Below, piece after piece: positions 855-8,306 of a stretch of DNA of 64,000 nt. The translations under genes were made by a program, and so were the position numbers. The stretch is from Silvibacterium bohemicum. GTDB lineage: Bacteria; Acidobacteriota; Terriglobia; Terriglobales; Acidobacteriaceae. The number at the start of each line of letters is the position of its first letter. Within the stretch, counting starts at the first letter, position 1. The stretch is taken from NCBI RefSeq assembly GCF_001006305.1, contig NZ_LBHJ01000004.1, positions 1-64,000 of the forward strand, in the 5' to 3' direction. The notes under the pieces were generated by a model. The model was not told the origin of the DNA and searched no databases. It worked only from the letters and a program-made list of their open reading frames with translations.

Positions 855-2207
855 TCAGGCGTAGCGGAAGAGCATCATGAAACCGAAGTCCATGTGGTTC
901 TGCTGGTGGCAGTGGAAGAGCGTGGGGCCGGGATTGGCTGCGACGAAATCAACTTCAGCGGTGGAGTTCGCGGAGACCACGATCACATCCTTGCGCAGGC
1001 CGGAGAGCGGCTTGCCATCGAGGCTGGTCACCTCGAAGGTATGGCGATGAAGATGGACAGGATGATCGTCCGAGCTTTTGTTGCGCATGGCGAGGCGATA
1101 GCGCTTCCCTTCCTGCAGCATCGGTGTGTCGGTCTTCGGATAGGACTTGCCGTTGATGGTCCAGTAATCGAAGTCGCCGTGGCCGCGAAACTTCGACTGG
1201 AAGAGCAGAGGCACACGCTGGTCGGGCTGCGCGCTGGCTGGCTCGGGGTGCGCGAAGGATCGGTAGTCCCATAGCGTCTCCTGCGGCTCGGCCCACCTGG
1301 GCTCGCCCTGCTGCCCGGCGTATTCGATGACGATGCCCATGCCCGATTTGCGAATGTCCGCGCGCGTCTCGCCCAGCACCCACACTCCGGGCTGGTTCAT
1401 CTCGACGATAACCTCGGCGCGTTCAGCCGGAGCAAGGCGAATGGCTGAGACACGAGCCTGTACCGGCACAGGATTTCCGTCGAGTGCGATCACTGTCATC
1501 GAATGACCGGCAAGCGCCAGCCAGTGCGTTATTGTCGCGCTGGCATTGACGATGCGGAAGAGAACACGCTGGTCCTGCTTCACCTGGATCGGCGCGCCCG
1601 CACCCAGCACGCGGTCGTTGATGGTCGCGTGCTCGTAGGAGGCGTCCATCGAGGCATCGGTCGCCGCACCCATGTAGGCGTTCCAGTCGTGCAGGGTGAG
1701 AAAAACTTCCTGATCGTATGCGCCGGGCTCGTTCCGTGGCTCGATATAGAAACATCCGAACTGGCCGGTGAACGAGCTTCGCTTCAGGTCGTGTCCGGCG
1801 TAGGTGTGGGTGTGATACCAGCGCAGGCCAGAAGGACGCGGCGTGAAGCTGTAACGCTGCTGTCCACCAGGCGCGATCATCGGCGAGCCCTCTTCCATCG
1901 CGCCGTCCTGATCGGAGGAAATCCACAGTCCGTGCCAGTGCACGATCTCCGGAACATCGGTGCGATTCGTCACGTCGATGGTAATGGGCTTGCCCTCCGG
2001 CCAGCGGATGAGCGGTCCCGGCACCTGTCCGTTGTAGGCAATGGTCTCGACATGCTTGCCGGGGGCGATCTCAAGCTTGAGCGGAGCAATCTCCAACCGG
2101 ACATCGGCCGGAGTTTGCGCCCAAAGCCTGCGCTGGCCTGAGGCAGCCAACAAGCCCGCGGCTGCGGAGGACTTCGCGATGAATTCACGCCGGTTCATTC
2201 TATGCAT
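855..2207 (-). CDS. Tat-exported multicopper oxidase (laccase/CueO-like)
   Basis: Periplasmic copper oxidase that couples one-electron substrate oxidation (possibly Cu(I) or phenols) to O2 reduction. The chosen start gives an immediate twin-arginine signal, NRREFIAKSSAAAG. A start 66 bases upstream would overlap the previous gene and bury the signal. All four copper motifs are visible: HWHG at about residues 90-93, HTHT at about 132-135, HPVHLHRH, and HCHQQNH at the C-terminus, supplying the T1 and trinuclear T2/T3 ligands. The T1 axial position, five residues after the last His, is Phe in MDFGFM, whereas CueO has Met. That resembles high-potential laccases. There is no Met-rich CueO insert. 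It follows the beta-barrel gene by only a few bases and is probably cotranscribed with it. Confidence 0.93.
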   Translation of the reverse strand: MHRMNRREFIAKSSAAAGLLAASGQRRLWAQTPADVRLEIAPLKLEIAPGKHVETIAYNGQVPGPLIRWPEGKPITIDVTNRTDVPEIVHWHGLWISSDQDGAMEEGSPMIAPGGQQRYSFTPRPSGLRWYHTHTYAGHDLKRSSFTGQFGCFYIEPRNEPGAYDQEVFLTLHDWNAYMGAATDASMDASYEHATINDRVLGAGAPIQVKQDQRVLFRIVNASATITHWLALAGHSMTVIALDGNPVPVQARVSAIRLAPAERAEVIVEMNQPGVWVLGETRADIRKSGMGIVIEYAGQQGEPRWAEPQETLWDYRSFAHPEPASAQPDQRVPLLFQSKFRGHGDFDYWTINGKSYPKTDTPMLQEGKRYRLAMRNKSSDDHPVHLHRHTFEVTSLDGKPLSGLRKDVIVVSANSTAEVDFVAANPGPTLFHCHQQNHMDFGFMMLFRYA

Positions 2208-2211
2208 GAGA

Positions 2212-3117
2212 CTACTGTGTGCTTTCCGAGCCGCCCGCGCGATGATGCGTCCAATCGAAGCGTCTCCCGACAATCGCTTTCACGATCAGATGATCGGTGC
2301 TCGCGGTGGGCCCGACGCCGACGCCGAAGTTGATCTCCCAGTTCGGCGAGACGTTGAGATCGACGGCGGGAAAAAACTGCTGCTGTTGATTGTGAAGTGA
2401 ATAGAAGCCGTGCAGCGATCCGTAATCGGCATAGTATTCGAGGCCGCCGGAGATGTATTTGTTGAAGTCGTAGCTGAATTTGGCGTTAGGAGAAAATCCC
2501 ACTCCTTCGCTGACGCTCTGGCCATGAAAGGAGCGCTCGAGCGCTGGATTCACAGTGAAGTACCAGCGGCCGATGCTCTTATCGATGATGGGGCGAATCT
2601 CCCAGGTCCATGTGTCGGTCGAAAAGTCGCGCCTCTGATAGCCGATCTCGGTGGACAAGCTCACGCCCACGGGCCAATGCCAGCTATCCGGAACCCTCAC
2701 GCGCGGACGGATGTGGTCACCGACCCATTGCCAGCCATCGCCGTCGCGCGCGCTGGTGAAGATATAAAAGCCCACCTCGGACCAGCTGTTGATGCCCTGC
2801 GTGATTTCCACCGTTTCATGCTCGGCGTGATCGGTGGGATAGAGCCGGTCGGCTGCAAATTTAGAACCGGGCAGCGGCTTGCTGCCGTCGGCAGTGAAGT
2901 TGCTGTGCAATTCAAGCATCGTGGTCTTGGGAGCGACGGTGTCCGAGCCGTAGACCTGAATCTCGTAGTTATCCTGGCCGTACGCGGCGCTTTCGACAGA
3001 GATGCCGAGAATAACTCCAGCAATGGCCAATAAAGAGACCACCATTGCACGACGCGCTCGCCGAGGCAATACTTGCCTCCTCCAGTTAGCGCGGAATATG
3101 ACCGGGGCTAGTTGCAT
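2212..3117 (-). CDS. Putative outer-membrane/exported protein partnered with the multicopper oxidase
   Basis: Protein of 301 residues with a long basic N-terminus followed by a hydrophobic signal segment (VVSLLAIAGVILGISVESA) and a likely cleavage site near AYGQ. The start is uncertain because an internal ATG at 3045 would give a more standard signal peptide. The mature part is rich in alternating aromatic and polar residues (for example WTWEIRPIIDKSIGRWYFTV) and ends in a strand-rich, YADYG- and FGVGVG-containing region, which suggests a small outer-membrane beta-barrel. I do not recognise a characterised family. It lies directly upstream of the multicopper oxidase, so a role in the same oxidative or metal process is inferred from context only. 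Confidence 0.75.
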   Translation of the reverse strand: MQLAPVIFRANWRRQVLPRRARRAMVVSLLAIAGVILGISVESAAYGQDNYEIQVYGSDTVAPKTTMLELHSNFTADGSKPLPGSKFAADRLYPTDHAEHETVEITQGINSWSEVGFYIFTSARDGDGWQWVGDHIRPRVRVPDSWHWPVGVSLSTEIGYQRRDFSTDTWTWEIRPIIDKSIGRWYFTVNPALERSFHGQSVSEGVGFSPNAKFSYDFNKYISGGLEYYADYGSLHGFYSLHNQQQQFFPAVDLNVSPNWEINFGVGVGPTASTDHLIVKAIVGRRFDWTHHRAGGSESTQ

Positions 3118-3434
3118 AAATCTAAATTGGAGAATTCAAAAACACTCCTCATCTCTCCACAAGGCCGTCCTTCTCAACGCAGTTGATACGCGCAGATCGC
3201 TGAGATTCCTCCTCCCTACGGTCGTCAGAATGACGGCGATCTTCAGCCGTCCACCATGATCTGGCTTCCCGACAGACCGAGTCATGAGCGAATCAAAGCT
3301 GTGCGCTGATACAAGCCATTTGTGCAATCGGTTATCAGAGGCTCTAAGCAAAAAGTAGCATGCACAAATGACGTGGTTGTCATCTTGCATGCCGCGTCTT
3401 GGGATGGTCTATTCGGCTGGTCTATTCTGTTGTT
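3118..3434. other. Intergenic region between divergent genes (no gene seen)
   Basis: About 317 bases between the divergent beta-barrel gene and the YkgJ gene. It must hold both promoters, but I cannot place them confidently. The stretch around 3200-3240 (GATTCCTCCTCCCTACGG followed by GTCGTCAGAATGACG) resembles dispersed intergenic repeats of many soil bacteria. That is an impression only. No start on either strand gives a convincing protein. Confidence 0.4.
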
Positions 3435-4034
3435 ATGTTGTTGCGTGCGGATGCCGAGCTGGTGCAGATCGTGGACGCTGCGTCGGCGGATGCGGCGCGC
3501 CGATCGGGCACGTGGTTGAAGTGCCGTCCGGGATGCACGCAGTGTTGCCATGGCGTCTTCGCCCTCAGCCAGCTTGATGCGTTGCGTCTGCGCGCGGGCT
3601 TGCGCGAGTTGGAGCAATCCGATCCAGAACGGGCGCTTGCGGTTCGCTCTCGCGCCGAGCAATCCAGACTTCGCTTATCCGCTCAATTTCCCGGCGATCC
3701 GGCCACGGGTATTCTTTACGACTCCGAAGAAGATGCGTTCGAGGACTTCGCCAACGACGAGCCTTGCCCGGTGCTCGATCCGACGACTGGAACCTGCGAT
3801 CTTTACGCGGCGCGTCCGATGACCTGCAGGGTCTTCGGACCTCCCATACGCTCGGAAGACGGCATTGGTGTCTGCGAGCTTTGTTTCGACGGCGCAAGTG
3901 AGCAGGAGATTGTGGCGGCGGAATTGAATATGGACTGGTCACCGCTCGAAGACTCGCTCAACGCTGAGGCTGAGGGCGACTCTGGCTTTCATGGCACTAC
4001 AATCGTTGCTTTTGCCCTCTTATCCCAACCGTAA
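3435..4034 (+). CDS. YkgJ-family cysteine-cluster (Zn/Fe-chelating) protein
   Basis: Protein of about 199 residues from the ATG at 3435. A start 36 bases upstream is possible but adds residues with no family resemblance. The N-terminal cluster CRPGCTQCCHG and the later PCPVLDPTTGTCDLY, ARPMTCRVFGPP and GVCELCF give the Cys spacing of the YkgJ/CxxCxxCC family, which is predicted to bind zinc or an iron-sulfur cluster. The acidic segment DSEEDAFEDFANDE sits between them. The molecular function of the family is not established. It lies directly upstream of the bufferin operon, on the same strand but about 260 bases away, so independent expression is likely. Confidence 0.85.
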   Translation: MLLRADAELVQIVDAASADAARRSGTWLKCRPGCTQCCHGVFALSQLDALRLRAGLRELEQSDPERALAVRSRAEQSRLRLSAQFPGDPATGILYDSEEDAFEDFANDEPCPVLDPTTGTCDLYAARPMTCRVFGPPIRSEDGIGVCELCFDGASEQEIVAAELNMDWSPLEDSLNAEAEGDSGFHGTTIVAFALLSQP

Positions 4035-4198: not shown

Positions 4199-4226
4199 TG
4201 TAACCTTAGTCGCGCTACCGTAGTCC
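4199..4226 (+). promoter_or_regulatory. Candidate ECF-sigma promoter of the bufferin operon
   Basis: TGTAACC at 4199-4205 matches the AAC-containing -35 elements typical of ECF sigma factors. It is followed after 17 bases by AGTCC (AGTC at 4222-4225), similar to the usual CGTC-type -10. It lies about 70 bases before the precursor ATG at 4297. The operon ends with its own ECF sigma/anti-sigma pair, so autoregulation is the simplest model. This is read by eye and is not experimentally supported. Confidence 0.5.
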
Positions 4227-4296
4227 TATGCGGTAGACGGCCTTCCCACCGGCGCTTTGCGCTAGGTCTTAGGCCTCAATATGGAGGAATGACAAT

Positions 4297-4596
4297 ATGA
4301 AGCACTCAATGAAGACCCTGATGGTTGCCGCGGCGGTCTCCGGCATGCTGAGTGGCGCTGCGACTATGCAGGCAGCCACCTCGCAGACCACCACCAACCC
4401 CGTCGTCAAGGTGGGTAAAGCGTCGTTCGGAAGCTCTTCGCTCAATCAGGACACCACCAAGCACTCCTGTAAAGGCAAGAATGATTGCAAGGGCCAGGGC
4501 GGCTGCAAGAGCAGCGACAATGGCTGCAAGGGCAAGAACAGCTGCAAGGGCAAGGGCGGCTGCGCCACCGACGGCTCCAAGCACCCCTCCGCATAA
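4297..4596 (+). CDS. bufA2: Bufferin-type (BufA2/HvfA-like) Cys-repeat RiPP metallophore precursor
   Basis: Small exported precursor peptide of 99 residues. The signal peptide (MKTLMVAAAVSGMLSGAATMQA) is probably cut after residue 26, a Ser/Thr-rich spacer follows, and the C-terminal core has six cysteines at 58, 64, 70, 77, 83 and 89. The core is a tandem duplication: CKGKNDCKGQGGC, a short linker, then CKGKNSCKGKGGC. In bufferins and HvfA-type peptides such cysteines are converted by a DUF692 enzyme into thiooxazole or oxazolone/thioamide groups that bind copper. The adjacent genes are exactly that machinery. A strong Shine-Dalgarno sequence, GGAGG, precedes the ATG. The family assignment is by motif and context; the metal and the exact modification are inferred. 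Confidence 0.85.
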   Translation: MKHSMKTLMVAAAVSGMLSGAATMQAATSQTTTNPVVKVGKASFGSSSLNQDTTKHSCKGKNDCKGQGGCKSSDNGCKGKNSCKGKGGCATDGSKHPSA

Positions 4597-4620
4597 CTTC
4601 AACTCCCACGATTTTTTTCC

Positions 4621-4650
4621 AGGGCCAGATCTGTTCCGGGCTGGCCCTTT
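4621..4650 (+). terminator. Hairpin between bufferin precursor and maturase genes
   Basis: AGGGCCAG (4621-4628) pairs perfectly with CTGGCCCT (4641-4648) across a 12-base loop and is followed by TT. A T-run (4612-4618) precedes it. It sits in the 93-base gap after the precursor stop. It could be a partial terminator or an RNA-stabilising 3' hairpin that lets the precursor be made in excess over the modification enzymes. The short T tract argues against full termination. Confidence 0.5.
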
Positions 4651-4689
4651 CACCTACAGCGATCTTCTTTAACTTGTGGAGTTCTCCCC

Positions 4690-5577
4690 GTGCCCGCAAA
4701 TCGCTTCAATGGCTTCACCGAGTATGGCGTCGGAATCGGATTGCGCATTCCGCACTATCAGCACATCCTGACCAGGAAGCCTCTCGTCGACTGGTTCGAG
4801 ATTATCTCGGAGAACTACATGATCGACGGCGGACGCCCGCTCGAGGTGCTGGATAAAATTCTCGACCAGTACCAGGTGGTGCAGCACGGCGTATCCATGT
4901 ATTTCGGTTCCGCGAGCGATCCGGACCCGGAGCATCTCAAGCGGCTTAAAACTCTTGTTCGACGTACGAAAACGCCCTGGCTCAGCGATCACCTTTGCTG
5001 GGGATCGGTAGACGGCCGCTATACGCACGATCTGCTGCCCATGCCGTACACCTGGGAAGCGGTCAAGGTCACCGCGGACCGCATCCGCCATGTGCAGGAT
5101 ACCCTCGAGATCCCAGTTGTCGTCGAGAACGTTTCGAGCTATGCCGAATATCACGTCTCGGAGATGACGGAGTGGGAATTCCTGAATGAGGTCGTCGAGC
5201 GCGCCGACTGCGGGATTCTGCTCGACGTGAACAATATCTATGTCTCATCTCAGAATCACAGCTTCGATCCCTTCACGTATGTGAATGCCGTCCCGGCTGA
5301 GCGCATCGCGCAGATCCATATCGCGGGGCACTCGAAGTTCGAGAAATATATTCTGGACACGCACGATCACCCGGTGCTCGAACCGGTGTGGCAGCTGTAT
5401 GCACGGACCATCGAGCGTGCAGGACCGACGGCCACGCTGCTGGAATGGGACGACAATATCCCGACCTTCGATGAGGTCCACGCCGAGGCGCTGAAGGCGA
5501 CGCGATTCCTCGATGCTGCGAAGGCTAAATTGGACGCTCCGGCGGTTGAACCTGCTCTGGAAGGAGCGATGCGATGA
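4690..5577 (+). CDS. bufB: DUF692/MNIO multinuclear iron RiPP maturase (BufB/HvfB/MbnB family)
   Basis: TIM-barrel oxidase of 295 residues that modifies precursor cysteines using a di- or tri-iron site and O2. It starts with GTG at 4690 behind GGAG. Conserved family segments run in order: GIGLRIPHYQHIL, FEIISENYM, QHGVSMYFGS, WLSDHLCWG, VVENVSSYAEY, LLDVNNIYVSS, QIHIAGH, DTHDHPV and LLEWDDNIP. These contain the His, Glu, Asp and Asn iron ligands known from MbnB-type enzymes. The length is typical. It follows the Cys-rich precursor by 93 bases and overlaps the DUF2063 gene by four bases (ATGA), so translation is coupled. The substrate is very probably the peptide at 4297-4596. Confidence 0.95.
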   Translation: MPANRFNGFTEYGVGIGLRIPHYQHILTRKPLVDWFEIISENYMIDGGRPLEVLDKILDQYQVVQHGVSMYFGSASDPDPEHLKRLKTLVRRTKTPWLSDHLCWGSVDGRYTHDLLPMPYTWEAVKVTADRIRHVQDTLEIPVVVENVSSYAEYHVSEMTEWEFLNEVVERADCGILLDVNNIYVSSQNHSFDPFTYVNAVPAERIAQIHIAGHSKFEKYILDTHDHPVLEPVWQLYARTIERAGPTATLLEWDDNIPTFDEVHAEALKATRFLDAAKAKLDAPAVEPALEGAMR

Positions 5578-6464
5578 GCGAGCTGCTCGAGCTGCAACGG
5601 CGAGTGGCCGCGGCCATCATGCATCCGCTCACCGGCAACGAGACCATGCCGCGCAAACGCCGCGATGGGTTGTCGAATACGGCGGAAGCCGATGCCCTCA
5701 TCAAACCGAATGACCGGCTGAGTTCCTTCGAGCGACTGGAGATTTATAACCGCCAGTATTGGTTTCGTCTTTACTCTTCTTTCGAGGAAGATTTTTCGGG
5801 GCTGAAGGCGATTCTCGGCCAGAAGAAGTTCGACCGCCTGATGCGAGATTATCTGACCGAGCGGCCTTCGCAATCGTTTTCGCTGCGCAACCTTGGGTCA
5901 CAACTCGAGGCCTGGCTGACCGAGCATCCTGAATACCTGGACGCGGAAAATCGGGAGCAGCAACGCGATCTCGCAATGGATATGGTGCGCCTGGAGTGGG
6001 CGCACATCGAGGCGTTCGACTCTGCGCAGCTTCCTCTGCTCGATCCCGACGACCTGGCATCGATCGACGAGAATTCGCAGCTGCGACTGCAGCCGTATCT
6101 TCGTCTCGTGGAGCTGCGCTATCCGGTCGAAGATCTGCTCATCGAGCTGCGCAGCGAGAGCGGAAGCAGCGATGCTTCGAGCAACAACGCCAGCATCAGC
6201 CGGAAAAGCCGGCATGTGCGGCGTGTGGCCATGCTCAGGCCGGAGCAGATTTACCTGGCCGTGCATCGCCACGAAAATTCCGTTTACTACAAACGGCTCG
6301 GCCGCGAGGACTACACGCTTCTTCAGTCGCTTCTTGCGGGAGCACCCATAGGCACAGCCATCGATGCAGCCCTTGCGGACAGCGCAATTGCGGAAGACGA
6401 TCAGGGAGAATTTCTCCAGCGGGCCTTTGCGTCCTGGGCGGCGCTTGGCTGGTTCATTCAATAA
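5574..6464 (+). CDS. bufC: DUF2063 RiPP maturation partner (BufC/HvfC-like)
   Basis: Protein of 296 residues. The N-terminal part matches the DUF2063/HvfC N-domain: LLELQRRVAAAIMHPL, then the typical RLSSFERLEIYNRQYWFRL and SFEEDFSGLKAILG segments. The C-terminal half (from about residue 130) is a second domain with long acidic helices and a winged-helix-like end (YYKRLGREDYTLLQSLL). In related systems this protein binds the precursor leader and delivers it to the DUF692 enzyme. That role is known for the family, not shown here. It is translationally coupled to the maturase by an ATGA overlap and precedes the DoxX gene by 12 bases. Confidence 0.9.
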   Translation: MSELLELQRRVAAAIMHPLTGNETMPRKRRDGLSNTAEADALIKPNDRLSSFERLEIYNRQYWFRLYSSFEEDFSGLKAILGQKKFDRLMRDYLTERPSQSFSLRNLGSQLEAWLTEHPEYLDAENREQQRDLAMDMVRLEWAHIEAFDSAQLPLLDPDDLASIDENSQLRLQPYLRLVELRYPVEDLLIELRSESGSSDASSNNASISRKSRHVRRVAMLRPEQIYLAVHRHENSVYYKRLGREDYTLLQSLLAGAPIGTAIDAALADSAIAEDDQGEFLQRAFASWAALGWFIQ

Positions 6465-6476
6465 GAGAGGTTATTT

Positions 6477-6971
6477 ATGAGCAGCACTGCATTATCTTCC
6501 CGGAACAGCTCCGGAATTTCGGGCCTCTGTGGCCGTTTTGCGCACTACGCCGATTTTCTACAGTCCCCCTTTCTGCTGCTGGTGCGGCTTTACTGGGGAT
6601 GGCAGTTCGCACAGACAGGTTGGGGCAAGCTGCACAACATCGGCCGAGTGAAAGACCTTTTTGTGAGCCTCAATATCCCCGCCCCCGCGGTCATGGCGCC
6701 GGCCATTTCGATGCTTGAGTTCGTCGGAGGCATCCTGCTCATCGTGGGACTGGGTTCGCGCCTGATCAGCTTGTTGCTGGCGGGAAATATGTTCGTCGCT
6801 TATGTCACGGCCGACCGCGAGGCGCTCGGTTCGGTGTTCAGCGATCCGGGCAAGTTTTATATTGCCGATCCCTTTACTTTTCTTTTTGCCTCGTTGATCA
6901 TTCTCGTCTTCGGCGCGGGTCTATTCTCTCTGGATGCGCTGATTGCCAGGAGGAATAAGACCGCGGTATGA
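6477..6971 (+). CDS. bufD: DoxX-family membrane protein of the bufferin operon (BufD/HvfX-like)
   Basis: Membrane protein of 164 residues with four predicted helices: FLLLVRLYWGWQFAQTGWGKL, MLEFVGGILLIVGLGSRLIS, LLLAGNMFVAYVTA and FTFLFASLIILVFGAGLF. The FAQTGWGKLHN motif after the first helix is the DoxX signature. DoxX/HvfX members commonly close bufferin-type operons and are thought to support redox chemistry or metal handling at the membrane. The exact role is unclear. A GAGAGG Shine-Dalgarno sequence precedes the ATG. The stop overlaps the sigma factor start by four bases (ATGA). Confidence 0.9.
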   Translation: MSSTALSSRNSSGISGLCGRFAHYADFLQSPFLLLVRLYWGWQFAQTGWGKLHNIGRVKDLFVSLNIPAPAVMAPAISMLEFVGGILLIVGLGSRLISLLLAGNMFVAYVTADREALGSVFSDPGKFYIADPFTFLFASLIILVFGAGLFSLDALIARRNKTAV

Positions 6972-7651
6972 CCGCGACCGAAACATTGGGAGCCGACGCA
7001 CAGAACAGCTCGGAAGCAGCGCTGATCGCGGCGATCCTGGCCGGCGATCGCGAGAAGTTTCACATTCTGATTCTTCCCTATGAGTCGCAGCTCTTCCGCA
7101 CGGCCTTTGCCCTGGTGAAGAATGCGGAAGAAGCGGAAGATGTTGTCCAGGATGCGGTGCTGAAGGCTTACCGCAAGCTGGGCAGCTTTCGCGGCGACGC
7201 CAAATTCAGCACCTGGCTGATCGCGATCACGCTGAACGAAGCACGCGGCCGGCTGCGCAAAGAGAACCGCACAATTGTGGATTCTCTGGACGAGCAGCGC
7301 GAAGAGAATGCCGACTTTACACCGGCAGCGTTGACCGATTGGAATGAGATTCCCTTGGCACTGCTGGAGCGGAAGGAAATCCGCGAGCTGGTGCAGCAGG
7401 CCGTTGCGGAATTGCCCGATACGTATCGCGAAATCGTAACGCTGCGTGACGTGGAGGAGTGCAGCGTCCTCGACACGGCCCATCTACTGGGCATTTCATC
7501 GGCCCTGGTTAAAGTACGGTTGCACCGTGCCCGCATGCTGCTGCAGAAGAGGCTTGCTCCTCAGCTCAACCGCGCGATCAAAGCAAGCTCGAAATCGACT
7601 TCCGATCGTCCCCGCAAGCGATCGTTGTTCCGGAGGACGCCATGGTTCTGA
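6968..7651 (+). CDS. ECF-type RNA polymerase sigma factor
   Basis: Sigma-70 family factor of 227 residues. Region 2 covers about residues 30-100 (LFRTAFALVKNAEEAEDVVQ through KFSTWLIAITLNEARGRLRK) and recognises the -10 element. Region 4, near residues 140-195 (ELPDTYREIVTLRDVEECSV followed by ALVKVRLHRARMLLQ), binds the -35 element. It has a basic tail of about 30 residues. It is the fifth gene of the bufferin operon, overlapping DoxX by four bases and the anti-sigma gene by ten. The likely target is the TGTAACC-type promoter in front of the precursor, giving positive feedback (inference). Confidence 0.95.
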   Translation: MTATETLGADAQNSSEAALIAAILAGDREKFHILILPYESQLFRTAFALVKNAEEAEDVVQDAVLKAYRKLGSFRGDAKFSTWLIAITLNEARGRLRKENRTIVDSLDEQREENADFTPAALTDWNEIPLALLERKEIRELVQQAVAELPDTYREIVTLRDVEECSVLDTAHLLGISSALVKVRLHRARMLLQKRLAPQLNRAIKASSKSTSDRPRKRSLFRRTPWF

Positions 7652-7896
7652 AATGCCGGCACGTGTGGGACCACATCTCTGGATACATCGACGGCGCACT
7701 CGATCCTGAAGTGCGTGCCAATGTCGAACGCCATCTCGCGACCTGCGAAATCTGCTCGGCGATCCTCGACTCAACGAGGAACATCATTATCCTGATGGCC
7801 GATGATCGCGTCTTCGAGCTGCCGGTGGACTTCAGCAAGAGACTGCACGCGCGTCTCGACGATGTGCTGAAGCATGAATATCCCGAGCCGGCTTGA
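7642..7896 (+). CDS. Zinc-finger (zf-HC2/ZAS) anti-sigma factor, soluble
   Basis: Protein of 84 residues with an HxxxCxxC zinc site (HLATCEIC) preceded by CRHVWDHISGYIDGALDPEV, the hallmark of the ZAS anti-sigma domain. There is no transmembrane helix, so it should act in the cytoplasm and may respond directly to metal or thiol state through its zinc site, as other soluble ZAS proteins do. It overlaps the sigma gene by ten bases, the usual arrangement for a cognate pair. It closes the bufferin operon. Confidence 0.92.
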   Translation: MVLKCRHVWDHISGYIDGALDPEVRANVERHLATCEICSAILDSTRNIIILMADDRVFELPVDFSKRLHARLDDVLKHEYPEPA

Positions 7897-7907: not shown

Positions 7908-8306
7908 TCAGCCGTGGTGCGGATGATGAAGCATGTGATGAATTTGCCACTCGGCAGCGAGAAGAATCAATGTAACCGCGGCTAGAAAGATCTGCCAGCG
8001 TTCGGAGCGTATCTCTTTCGCGGTGGGCAGCTGAACCCGCCACTGCGCGGCCGGCCGGCTGCGTAAGTTGCGCACTCTCCAGATCACATAAAGATTCACC
8101 AGAGTGCCGGCAAGCGCGAGCACCATCATCGGTATGCGGATGGCATCGCGGTGCCATCCTGCGGCGGGCGCATCAGTGCCTGCAGCAGCGGCCAGAGCTC
8201 CCAGCCCGATGAGCACACGTACACCGCTGATGGTCAATACGGCTGTACAAAGGCTTTGCAGAAGGGCAAATACAAAACTCGACCAGCTTAACCAACGGGT
8301 CTTCAT
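7908..8306 (-). CDS. Small membrane protein with histidine-rich C-terminal tail
   Basis: Protein of 132 residues from the ATG at 8306 (MKTRWLSW), which has AGGA upstream. Longer versions add a low-quality basic stretch that overlaps the repeat region. Three to four hydrophobic helices are visible: SFVFALLQSLCTAVLTISG, GVRVLIGLGALAAAAG, IPMMVLALAGTLVNLYVIW and WQIFLAAVTLILLAAEW. The protein ends IHHMLHHPHHG, a potential metal-binding tail. I do not recognise the family. It converges on the bufferin operon with an 11-base gap, so the pairing may be coincidental or may reflect shared metal biology. Confidence 0.75.
   Translation of the reverse strand: MKTRWLSWSSFVFALLQSLCTAVLTISGVRVLIGLGALAAAAGTDAPAAGWHRDAIRIPMMVLALAGTLVNLYVIWRVRNLRSRPAAQWRVQLPTAKEIRSERWQIFLAAVTLILLAAEWQIHHMLHHPHHG

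What the first reader, a model, noticed from the sequence alone, without database searches (positions are those of the whole stretch)
4199..7896. Complete bufferin-type RiPP operon with its own ECF sigma and anti-sigma pair
The sequence shows six tightly packed genes: Cys-repeat precursor, DUF692 iron maturase, DUF2063 partner, DoxX protein, ECF sigma factor and zinc-finger anti-sigma factor. The last four are joined by overlaps of 4-12 bases or gaps. Established knowledge: DUF692 plus DUF2063 plus DoxX modify bufferin/HvfA precursors to make copper-binding thiooxazole or oxazolone/thioamide peptides. The unusual points are the phylum and the regulatory pair fused to the operon end, which implies a self-controlled metal response. 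This looks like the most important system in the window.
Basis: partly seen in the sequence, partly recalled or inferred. Interest (0 to 1): 0.8.

Follow-up and report, generated by a model that had tools for sequence, protein, structure and literature searches.

The report
Acidobacterial copper-peptide operon with sigma control
A soil Acidobacterium carries a gene set that probably makes a modified copper-binding peptide and runs its own stress switch (a sigma factor and its zinc-finger inhibitor), a layout already known from Neisseria but here paired with a different peptide class and, by prediction, wired to copper export and protein-repair genes.

Summary
In detail: six tightly packed genes at 4297-7896 encode a six-Cys precursor, an MNIO maturase (above the curated BufB cut-off), a DUF2063 protein, DoxX, an ECF sigma factor and a zinc-finger (ZAS) anti-sigma factor, with an ECF-like promoter at 4199-4225. 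ECF+ZAS occur in 40 of 82 loci compared, in three layouts. TGTWACY-N15-18-TC precedes the precursor in 36 of 40 linked loci, against about 1 of 40 random windows; its -35 half precedes 15 of 15 separate DoxX-ECF-ZAS units. In the window's genome the motif also precedes a CusA-type efflux/MsrP-like operon, a second bufferin (DUF2282) operon and a redoxin/MsrB operon. This predicts a self-regulated periplasmic copper/redox regulon. Closest known: the neisserial sigmaE-MseR operon (same gene content, ZAS spacing, msrAB target). A survey states that sigma/NrsF genes occur in Buf1 but not Buf2 clusters, so this is a new variant of a known kind. An uncharacterised membrane protein (7908-8306, minus strand) accompanies ECF-ZAS in 31 of 40 linked loci. 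Inducing signal and peptide chemistry are untested.

The parts
4199..4225 (+). Predicted ECF promoter TGTAACC-N18-TC, 98 bases before the precursor start codon
   Evidence: TGTWACY-N15-18-TC precedes the precursor in 36 of 40 ECF-linked loci
4297..4596 (+). Buf2-like precursor: signal-peptide-like N-terminus, then a six-Cys Lys/Gly core
   Evidence: (NF050166, 33.3 bits, cut-off 60); signal peptide judged by eye
4621..4648 (+). Hairpin between precursor and maturase genes (8-bp arms AGGGCCAG/CTGGCCCT, 12-base loop); possible attenuator or mRNA end
   Evidence: a stem of 7 or more in 62 of 75 loci, about 7 of 75 in dinucleotide shuffles
4690..5577 (+). MNIO (DUF692) maturase, BufB type
   Evidence: PF05114 361.3 bits; NF050167 352.9, cut-off 310; solved-structure relatives 3bww, 8hci, 7dz9
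5574..6464 (+). DUF2063 partner protein
   Evidence: PF09836 52.7 bits, cut-off 27.2; NF050145 HvfC 38.8, cut-off 142 not met
6477..6971 (+). DoxX membrane protein
   Evidence: PF07681 65.9 bits; NF050144 55, cut-off 80 not met
6968..7651 (+). ECF sigma factor
   Evidence: Sigma70_r2 58.4 and r4_2 54 bits
7642..7896 (+). Soluble 84-aa zinc-finger anti-sigma factor, Cys5-His31-x3-Cys35-x2-Cys38
   Evidence: zf-HC2 51.1 bits; the four ligands invariant in 40 of 40 aligned; solubility judged by eye
7908..8306 (-). Convergent 132-aa membrane protein of unknown family that accompanies ECF-ZAS
   Evidence: 31 of 40 ECF-linked loci (window counted), 26 of them convergent next to ZAS; 0 of 42 loci without ECF+ZAS

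Best explanation
It is a bufferin-type (MNIO plus DUF2063) RiPP operon under the control of its own ECF sigma factor and a soluble zinc-binding anti-sigma factor. Model: at rest the ZAS protein holds the sigma factor. A stress signal (most likely excess copper and/or the thiol oxidation it causes) disturbs the Cys-His-Cys-Cys zinc site and frees the sigma factor. The sigma factor then starts transcription at TGTAACC-N(about 17)-TC(T/A)AA promoters, including that of its own operon. The precursor is made in excess (hairpin after its gene), is oxidatively modified at Cys by the MNIO-DUF2063 pair before export, and binds copper in the periplasm. The same sigma factor raises copper efflux and periplasmic methionine-sulfoxide repair. 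Shown here by sequence comparison: gene content, conservation of the zinc ligands, promoter sharing, co-occurrence. Inferred: the signal, the modification, copper binding, the use of the promoter, and the roles of hairpin, DoxX and membrane protein.
For: Families. Eighty loci, 77 of them titled as Acidobacteriota and 3 as Verrucomicrobiota. ECF+ZAS in 40 of 82 loci: 15 downstream, 19 upstream on the opposite strand, 6 upstream on the same strand. Promoter motif before the precursor: 36 of 40 linked and 10 of 36 unlinked loci; random 300-base windows of the linked loci average 1.0 of 40, maximum 4 in 500 draws; 0 of 40 before the MNIO gene (N15-17 form). TGTAAC(C/T) before 15 of 15 separate DoxX-ECF-ZAS units. 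Seven genomes where ECF-ZAS is not beside the bufferin operon: motif before 7 of 7 ECF units and 4 of 7 precursors; six genomes with a bufferin but no ZAS match above 100 bits: 0 of 6 (4 of these 20 stretches were seen before, see Tried and rejected). Co-occurrence in 120 genomes: 50 both, 6 and 6 one only, 58 neither (tallied in 60). Own-genome motif sites before CusA-type RND-YtkA-OEP-CusB-cyt b561-MsrP-like genes, before DUF2282 precursor-MNIO-DUF2063, and before redoxin-MsrB. Relatives: one site each before MsrA, MsrB and a cyt b561 protein.
Against: The pattern TGTAACY-N16-17-TCTAA is hardly enriched genome-wide: 26 hits against 22 for the reversed pattern in 12 relatives, 3 of which had none; 2 of the 6 own-genome sites look like chance (L083, L087). 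The window's own copy has a spacer of 18 and TCCTA as -10. Units led by the ECF gene alone carry TGTAAC(C/T) in only 3 of 10. Among the unlinked genomes new to the analysis only 2 of 5 precursors have the motif. Precursor, DUF2063 and DoxX proteins fall below the NCBIfam equivalog cut-offs; the MsrP-like protein scores 87 against 207. Six genomes have ZAS but no close MNIO, 5 of 6 with the motif before ECF, so the regulator also serves other genes. The phylogeny-aware pair test was uninformative. No expression or chemical data.
Confidence: 0.75

Rival explanations
1. The regulator is mainly a redox/hypochlorite-type stress switch for methionine-sulfoxide repair, and the bufferin is a downstream stress peptide; copper is not the direct signal.
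For: The ZAS layout equals that printed for meningococcal MseR (Cys4, His30-x3-Cys34-x2-Cys37), with the same spacing in 40 of 40 here. Haemophilus RpoE2 answers HOCl and controls msrAB and a DoxX/MNIO/DUF2063 cluster (PMC7907618 passages). Motif before MsrA, MsrB and MsrP-like genes.
Against: In the window's genome the two sites with the strictest motif lie in an island with a CusA/CzcA-type pump and a second bufferin operon. Meningococcal sigmaE expression was not altered by the oxidants tried (PMC2893595 abstract).
Confidence: 0.35
2. ECF-ZAS is only a neighbour and the bufferin operon is driven by another promoter; shared motifs reflect common descent of the region.
For: Half of the loci lack ECF+ZAS nearby; a group without it (for example L013-L018) lacks the motif but keeps the operon. 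Pair test inconclusive.
Against: Where ECF-ZAS has moved away the motif is still found before 4 of 7 precursors and 7 of 7 ECF units, and it is found in 0 of 6 genomes without a close ZAS match; at least 15 layout changes on a weakly supported MNIO tree.
Confidence: 0.12
3. The peptide handles another soft metal (zinc, gold, cadmium, mercury) rather than copper.
For: Caulobacter sigmaF answers chromium and cadmium (PMC3511200 abstract); MerC-bufferin fusions are reported (PMC12452194 section 14).
Against: A CusA/CzcA-family pump, a Met-rich membrane-fusion protein and cytochrome-linked repair genes lie behind one predicted promoter, though that pump family also exports other metals; related peptides bind Cu (PMC12668002 section 10).
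Confidence: 0.15

Closest known systems
Neisserial sigmaE-MseR operon (NMB2140-NMB2145 / NGO1948-NGO1943)
   Same: DoxX, periplasmic precursor, MNIO, DUF2063, ECF sigma and ZAS anti-sigma in one autoregulated operon; Cys-His-Cys-Cys spacing 26-4-3; msrAB in the regulon; -10 TCTAA (PMC2893595 passages; PMC2954202 passages)
   Different: The gonococcal product (gonophorin) is of EGKCG type (PMC12668002); here the precursor is a six-Cys, Cys-Lys type; gene order differs (precursor first, DoxX fourth); -35 GTAAGGTT there, TGTAACC here; additional predicted targets (Cus pump, second bufferin); extra membrane protein
Caulobacter sigmaF-NrsF
   Same: ECF control of a small heavy-metal regulon; promoter GTAACC-N16-CGAA shares the -35 (PMC3511200 passages). 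That this regulon includes a Buf1 operon is recalled; the survey places sigma/NrsF genes in Buf1 clusters
   Different: NrsF is another anti-sigma family: PF06532 has 0 matches in this genome and is found in 2 of 41 genomes searched; -10 CGAA there, TC(T/A)AA here; precursor class
Buf2 (six/twelve-Cys) bufferins
   Same: Six-Cys secreted precursor, BufB-type MNIO, DUF2063, DoxX
   Different: Precursor below the curated BufA2 cut-off; sigma and anti-sigma genes, which the survey reports for Buf1 but not Buf2 clusters; 24 of 77 precursors here have four or five Cys
Haemophilus RpoE2-HrsE
   Same: Cytoplasmic small anti-sigma factor; controls a DoxX/MNIO/DUF2063 cluster and Met-sulfoxide repair (PMC7907618 passages)
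   Different: Sigma gene is not in the RiPP operon; the precursor (HvfA, oxazolin) is of EGKCG type (that HvfA is from Haemophilus is recalled)

Membership tests
MNIO bufferin maturase (BufB, NF050167) | Curated whole-protein score of at least 310 | tested here: met
   352.9 bits
BufA2 / Buf2 precursor | Curated NF050166 score of at least 60 | tested here: not met
   33.3 bits, E 4.2e-8; so described as Buf2-like, not filed as BufA2
BufA2 / Buf2 precursor | Six conserved Cys in the core | tested here: met
   six Cys in the window protein; of 77 precursors 52 have six, 1 seven, 24 four or five, signal peptide included in the count
BufA2 / Buf2 precursor | Sec signal peptide | tested here: inconclusive
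   N-terminus looks right by eye; no signal-peptide program was available
Buf1 precursor (DUF2282) | PF10048 match | tested here: not met
   no PF10048 in the window precursor; the second cluster in the same genome has it, 82.7 bits
Zn-finger (ZAS) anti-sigma, RsrA/MseR type | zf-HC2 domain; Cys + His-x3-Cys-x2-Cys; no membrane segment | tested here: met
   51.1 bits; ligands 40 of 40; 75-92 aa; absence of a membrane segment judged by eye
NrsF-type control | NrsF (PF06532) anti-sigma factor | tested here: not met
   0 matches in own genome
Neisserial sigmaE-type self-regulated MNIO operon | Same promoter before the operon and its other targets | tested here: met
   by sequence only, activity not tested
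Copper-binding bufferin/captophorin | Modified Cys (5-thiooxazole) and Cu binding | not testable with these tools
   needs mass spectrometry and metal titration

The most novel reading that the evidence does not exclude
Acidobacteria use a three-part switch (ECF sigma, cytosolic zinc anti-sigma and a previously unnoticed membrane protein with invariant Cys20, His52 and His123) to relay periplasmic copper or oxidant stress, and it coordinates two bufferin classes, Cus-type efflux and periplasmic methionine-sulfoxide repair as one regulon.
Probability: 0.25. Interest if true: 0.7.

Novelty: new variant of a known kind. Interest (0 to 1): 0.5.

Why it matters
It extends sigma/ZAS control of MNIO peptides from Neisseria and Haemophilus to a soil phylum and to the Buf2-like precursor class, for which a recent survey reported no sigma genes. 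It suggests that the neisserial arrangement is one case of a wider periplasmic copper/redox defence regulon, gives a promoter motif with which its targets can be tested, and points to an uncharacterised membrane protein that follows the regulator.

Tried and rejected
Considered and rejected: methanobactin-type (MbnB model 43.7 against 325); NrsF control; chance ORFs (homologous loci). A first, tighter motif form (N15-17) missed the window itself and five other linked loci whose spacer is 18; the form with N15-18 was chosen after seeing these, so its 36 of 40 is not a blind count. The strict pattern showed hardly any excess over its reverse in 12 relatives (26 against 22). The tree-based pair tests had too few pairs to decide; four of the 94 rows carried internal stops, read as gaps, and only 13 of 87 inner branches were well supported. 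Discriminating sigma residues for the CTGTTACC variant group come from one group of six and prove nothing. PDB fold search for the membrane protein gave no match at E 0.001 or better. Solved-structure search with the DUF2063 protein gave none at E 0.1. Paper one search ('bufferin' alone) returned only papers on buffering.

Dropped rows: L002, L025, L042 have no precursor hit, and L021 and L082 gave a wrong short frame, leaving 77; loci with under 300 bases upstream were dropped for (76 left). Without these the figures are 2 of 5 precursors, 6 of 6 ECF units and 0 of 5 without ZAS. Seven of the 10 DoxX-ECF-ZAS hits are the same places as. The 100-bit (ZAS) and 500-bit (MNIO) limits were set after seeing the lists; the ZAS list was cut below about 38 bits. 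The 42 loci without ECF+ZAS include short contigs and L002, so the absence of the membrane protein from them is a weak count.
Full report
WHAT IS THERE. Family scans: MNIO maturase PF05114 361.3 bits and NCBIfam BufB 352.9 (cut-off 310); DUF2063; DoxX; ECF sigma regions 2 and 4; zf-HC2 anti-sigma. The precursor is a 99-aa protein with six Cys, nearest to NCBIfam BufA2 but below its cut-off (33.3 of 60). Start coordinate 4199 is the first base of an ECF-like promoter.

RELATIVES. A scan of named genome contigs with the MNIO protein kept the best 80 of 532 relatives; 77 are titled as Acidobacteriota and 3 as Verrucomicrobiota, with 76-92 % identity. In these 80, tblastn finds the precursor in 78, DUF2063 in 77, DoxX in 73, ECF+ZAS in 39, all six in 37, and the window's own order in 12. 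Seventy-seven usable precursors share a core of Lys/Gly-spaced Cys: 52 have six, one has seven, 24 have four or five. The four-Cys forms lack the central pair. Counting the window and L002, ECF and ZAS are present in 40 of 82 loci: 15 downstream in line, 19 upstream on the opposite strand, 6 upstream on the same strand. The pair thus stays with the operon through rearrangements. A quick, weakly supported MNIO tree needs at least 15 layout changes; the independent-pairs tests could not decide.

PROMOTER. TGTAAC occurs before 30 of 40 linked and 10 of 37 unlinked precursor genes, against about 3 of 77 (maximum 7) in Markov resamples. Aligned sites give CTGTAACC-N(about 17)-TC(T/A)AA. The form TGTWACY-N15-18-TC is found before 36 of 40 linked and 10 of 36 unlinked precursors; random windows of the linked loci average 1.0 of 40. 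Where DoxX-ECF-ZAS forms a separate unit, TGTAAC(C/T) precedes 15 of 15; where ECF alone leads, 3 of 10. In seven genomes whose ECF-ZAS lies elsewhere, the bipartite motif precedes 7 of 7 ECF units and 4 of 7 precursors; in six with a bufferin but no close ZAS, 0 of 6; in six with ZAS but no close MNIO, 5 of 6 ECF genes (overlaps with earlier loci are told under Tried and rejected). Among 120 genomes of the order, 50 have both a close ZAS and a close MNIO, 6 and 6 only one, 58 neither (Fisher p 4e-20, not corrected for kinship).

PREDICTED REGULON. In the window's genome (6.46 Mb) two motif scans gave six distinct sites, none for the reversed control. Four lie before relevant genes: the operon itself; C13:198229, before a small Cys/Met-rich ORF and a CusA/CzcA-family RND pump (TIGR00914, 1114.5 bits), YtkA, outer-membrane and CusB-like proteins, cytochrome b561 and an MsrP-like molybdoenzyme (Pfam Oxidored_molyb 92.4 bits; NCBIfam MsrP 87 of 207); C13:205494, before a 458-aa protein without family, a DUF2282 (Buf1) precursor, a second MNIO (BufB 355.6 bits) and DUF2063; and C16:659190, before a redoxin and an MsrB. 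The other two look like chance. In 12 relatives the strict pattern gave 26 hits against 22 reversed, so it is hardly enriched as such, but 10 lie before DoxX-ECF-ZAS units (7 of them already seen) and one each before MsrB, MsrA and a cytochrome b561 protein. Strain ZG23-2, whose bufferin operon has the motif but no neighbouring ECF, carries DoxX-ECF-ZAS about 0.95 Mb away under the same motif.

ANTI-SIGMA. The 40 ZAS proteins are 75-92 aa long, and Cys5, His31, Cys35, Cys38 are invariant in 40 of 40. The spacing equals that printed for meningococcal MseR. NrsF, the anti-sigma family that the survey reports with Buf1 clusters, has no match in this genome.

NEW COMPANION. A convergent 132-aa membrane protein right after ZAS has homologues in 31 of 40 linked loci (window included), 26 of them convergent next to ZAS, and in none of 42 loci without ECF+ZAS; a copy lies beside the Cus island. 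The absence count is weakened by short contigs. Invariant in the 29-row alignment: Cys20, His52, His123 among 14 positions. No Pfam, PHROG or NCBIfam family for the window protein; two of 29 members match CopD weakly, best E 7e-4. Model pLDDT 81.3, pTM 0.55, three long helices, no PDB fold match at E 0.001.

LITERATURE. [quoted passage not shown] the word Acidobacteria does not occur in its main text. The neisserial operon NMB2140-2145 is the closest precedent (PMC2893595, passages; PMC2954202, passages); Haemophilus RpoE2 controls a like cluster (PMC7907618, passages). Paper searches joining DUF692, bufferin or ECF terms with sigma/anti-sigma or Acidobacteria listed no paper that I recognised as reporting this arrangement in that phylum (listings, open-access library only). 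The Antarctic soil study describes six-Cys DUF692 clusters in Gammaproteobacteria (PMC8692599, passages). Recalled without a call: RsrA ligand numbering and the identity of MNIO metal ligands.

VERDICT. A real, conserved bufferin-type operon with strong sequence signs of self-regulation; a new variant of a known kind. What is new is the Buf2-like pairing, the predicted breadth of the regulon and the membrane companion; signal and chemistry remain to be measured.

Noticed in passing
window 7908-8306 (-): Uncharacterised 132-aa membrane protein that accompanies ECF-ZAS in 31 of 40 linked loci, with invariant Cys and His; no family.
   Followed up: partly
L096 (G000:C13:190000-209900): Copper island in the same genome: CusA-type pump operon with MsrP-like gene, a DUF2282 bufferin operon, and two small Cys/Met-rich secreted-looking ORFs.
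   Followed up: partly
window 4621-4648 and homologous gaps: Hairpin between precursor and maturase genes in 62 of 75 loci (about 7 in shuffles); may set precursor excess.
   Followed up: partly
L012, L020, L037, L047, L053, L058: These six have -35 CTGTTACC instead of CTGTAACC, with sigma region-4 differences (for example V183 to M); Edaphobacter aggregans has loci of both types (L037, L057).
   Followed up: partly
L022, L023, L026, L031 and others: Four-Cys precursors (18 of 77) that lack the central Cys pair, against six or twelve Cys reported for Buf2.
   Followed up: no
window 21918, 22394, 27743, 55563: Four further TGTAACC-N15-18-TC matches in the window (5 in all against 0.5 expected in shuffles); not checked for genes.
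   Followed up: no
window 855-4034: Multicopper oxidase, an outer-membrane-like protein and a CxxCxxCC protein upstream of the operon; among 80 loci all three are kept beside it in L005 and L011 only, the last also in L003.
   Followed up: partly
G007 contig C11:112705-127363 (L109, L115, L119-L121): Five strict promoter matches within 15 kb in Edaphobacter aggregans, only one of them before DoxX-ECF-ZAS.
   Followed up: no
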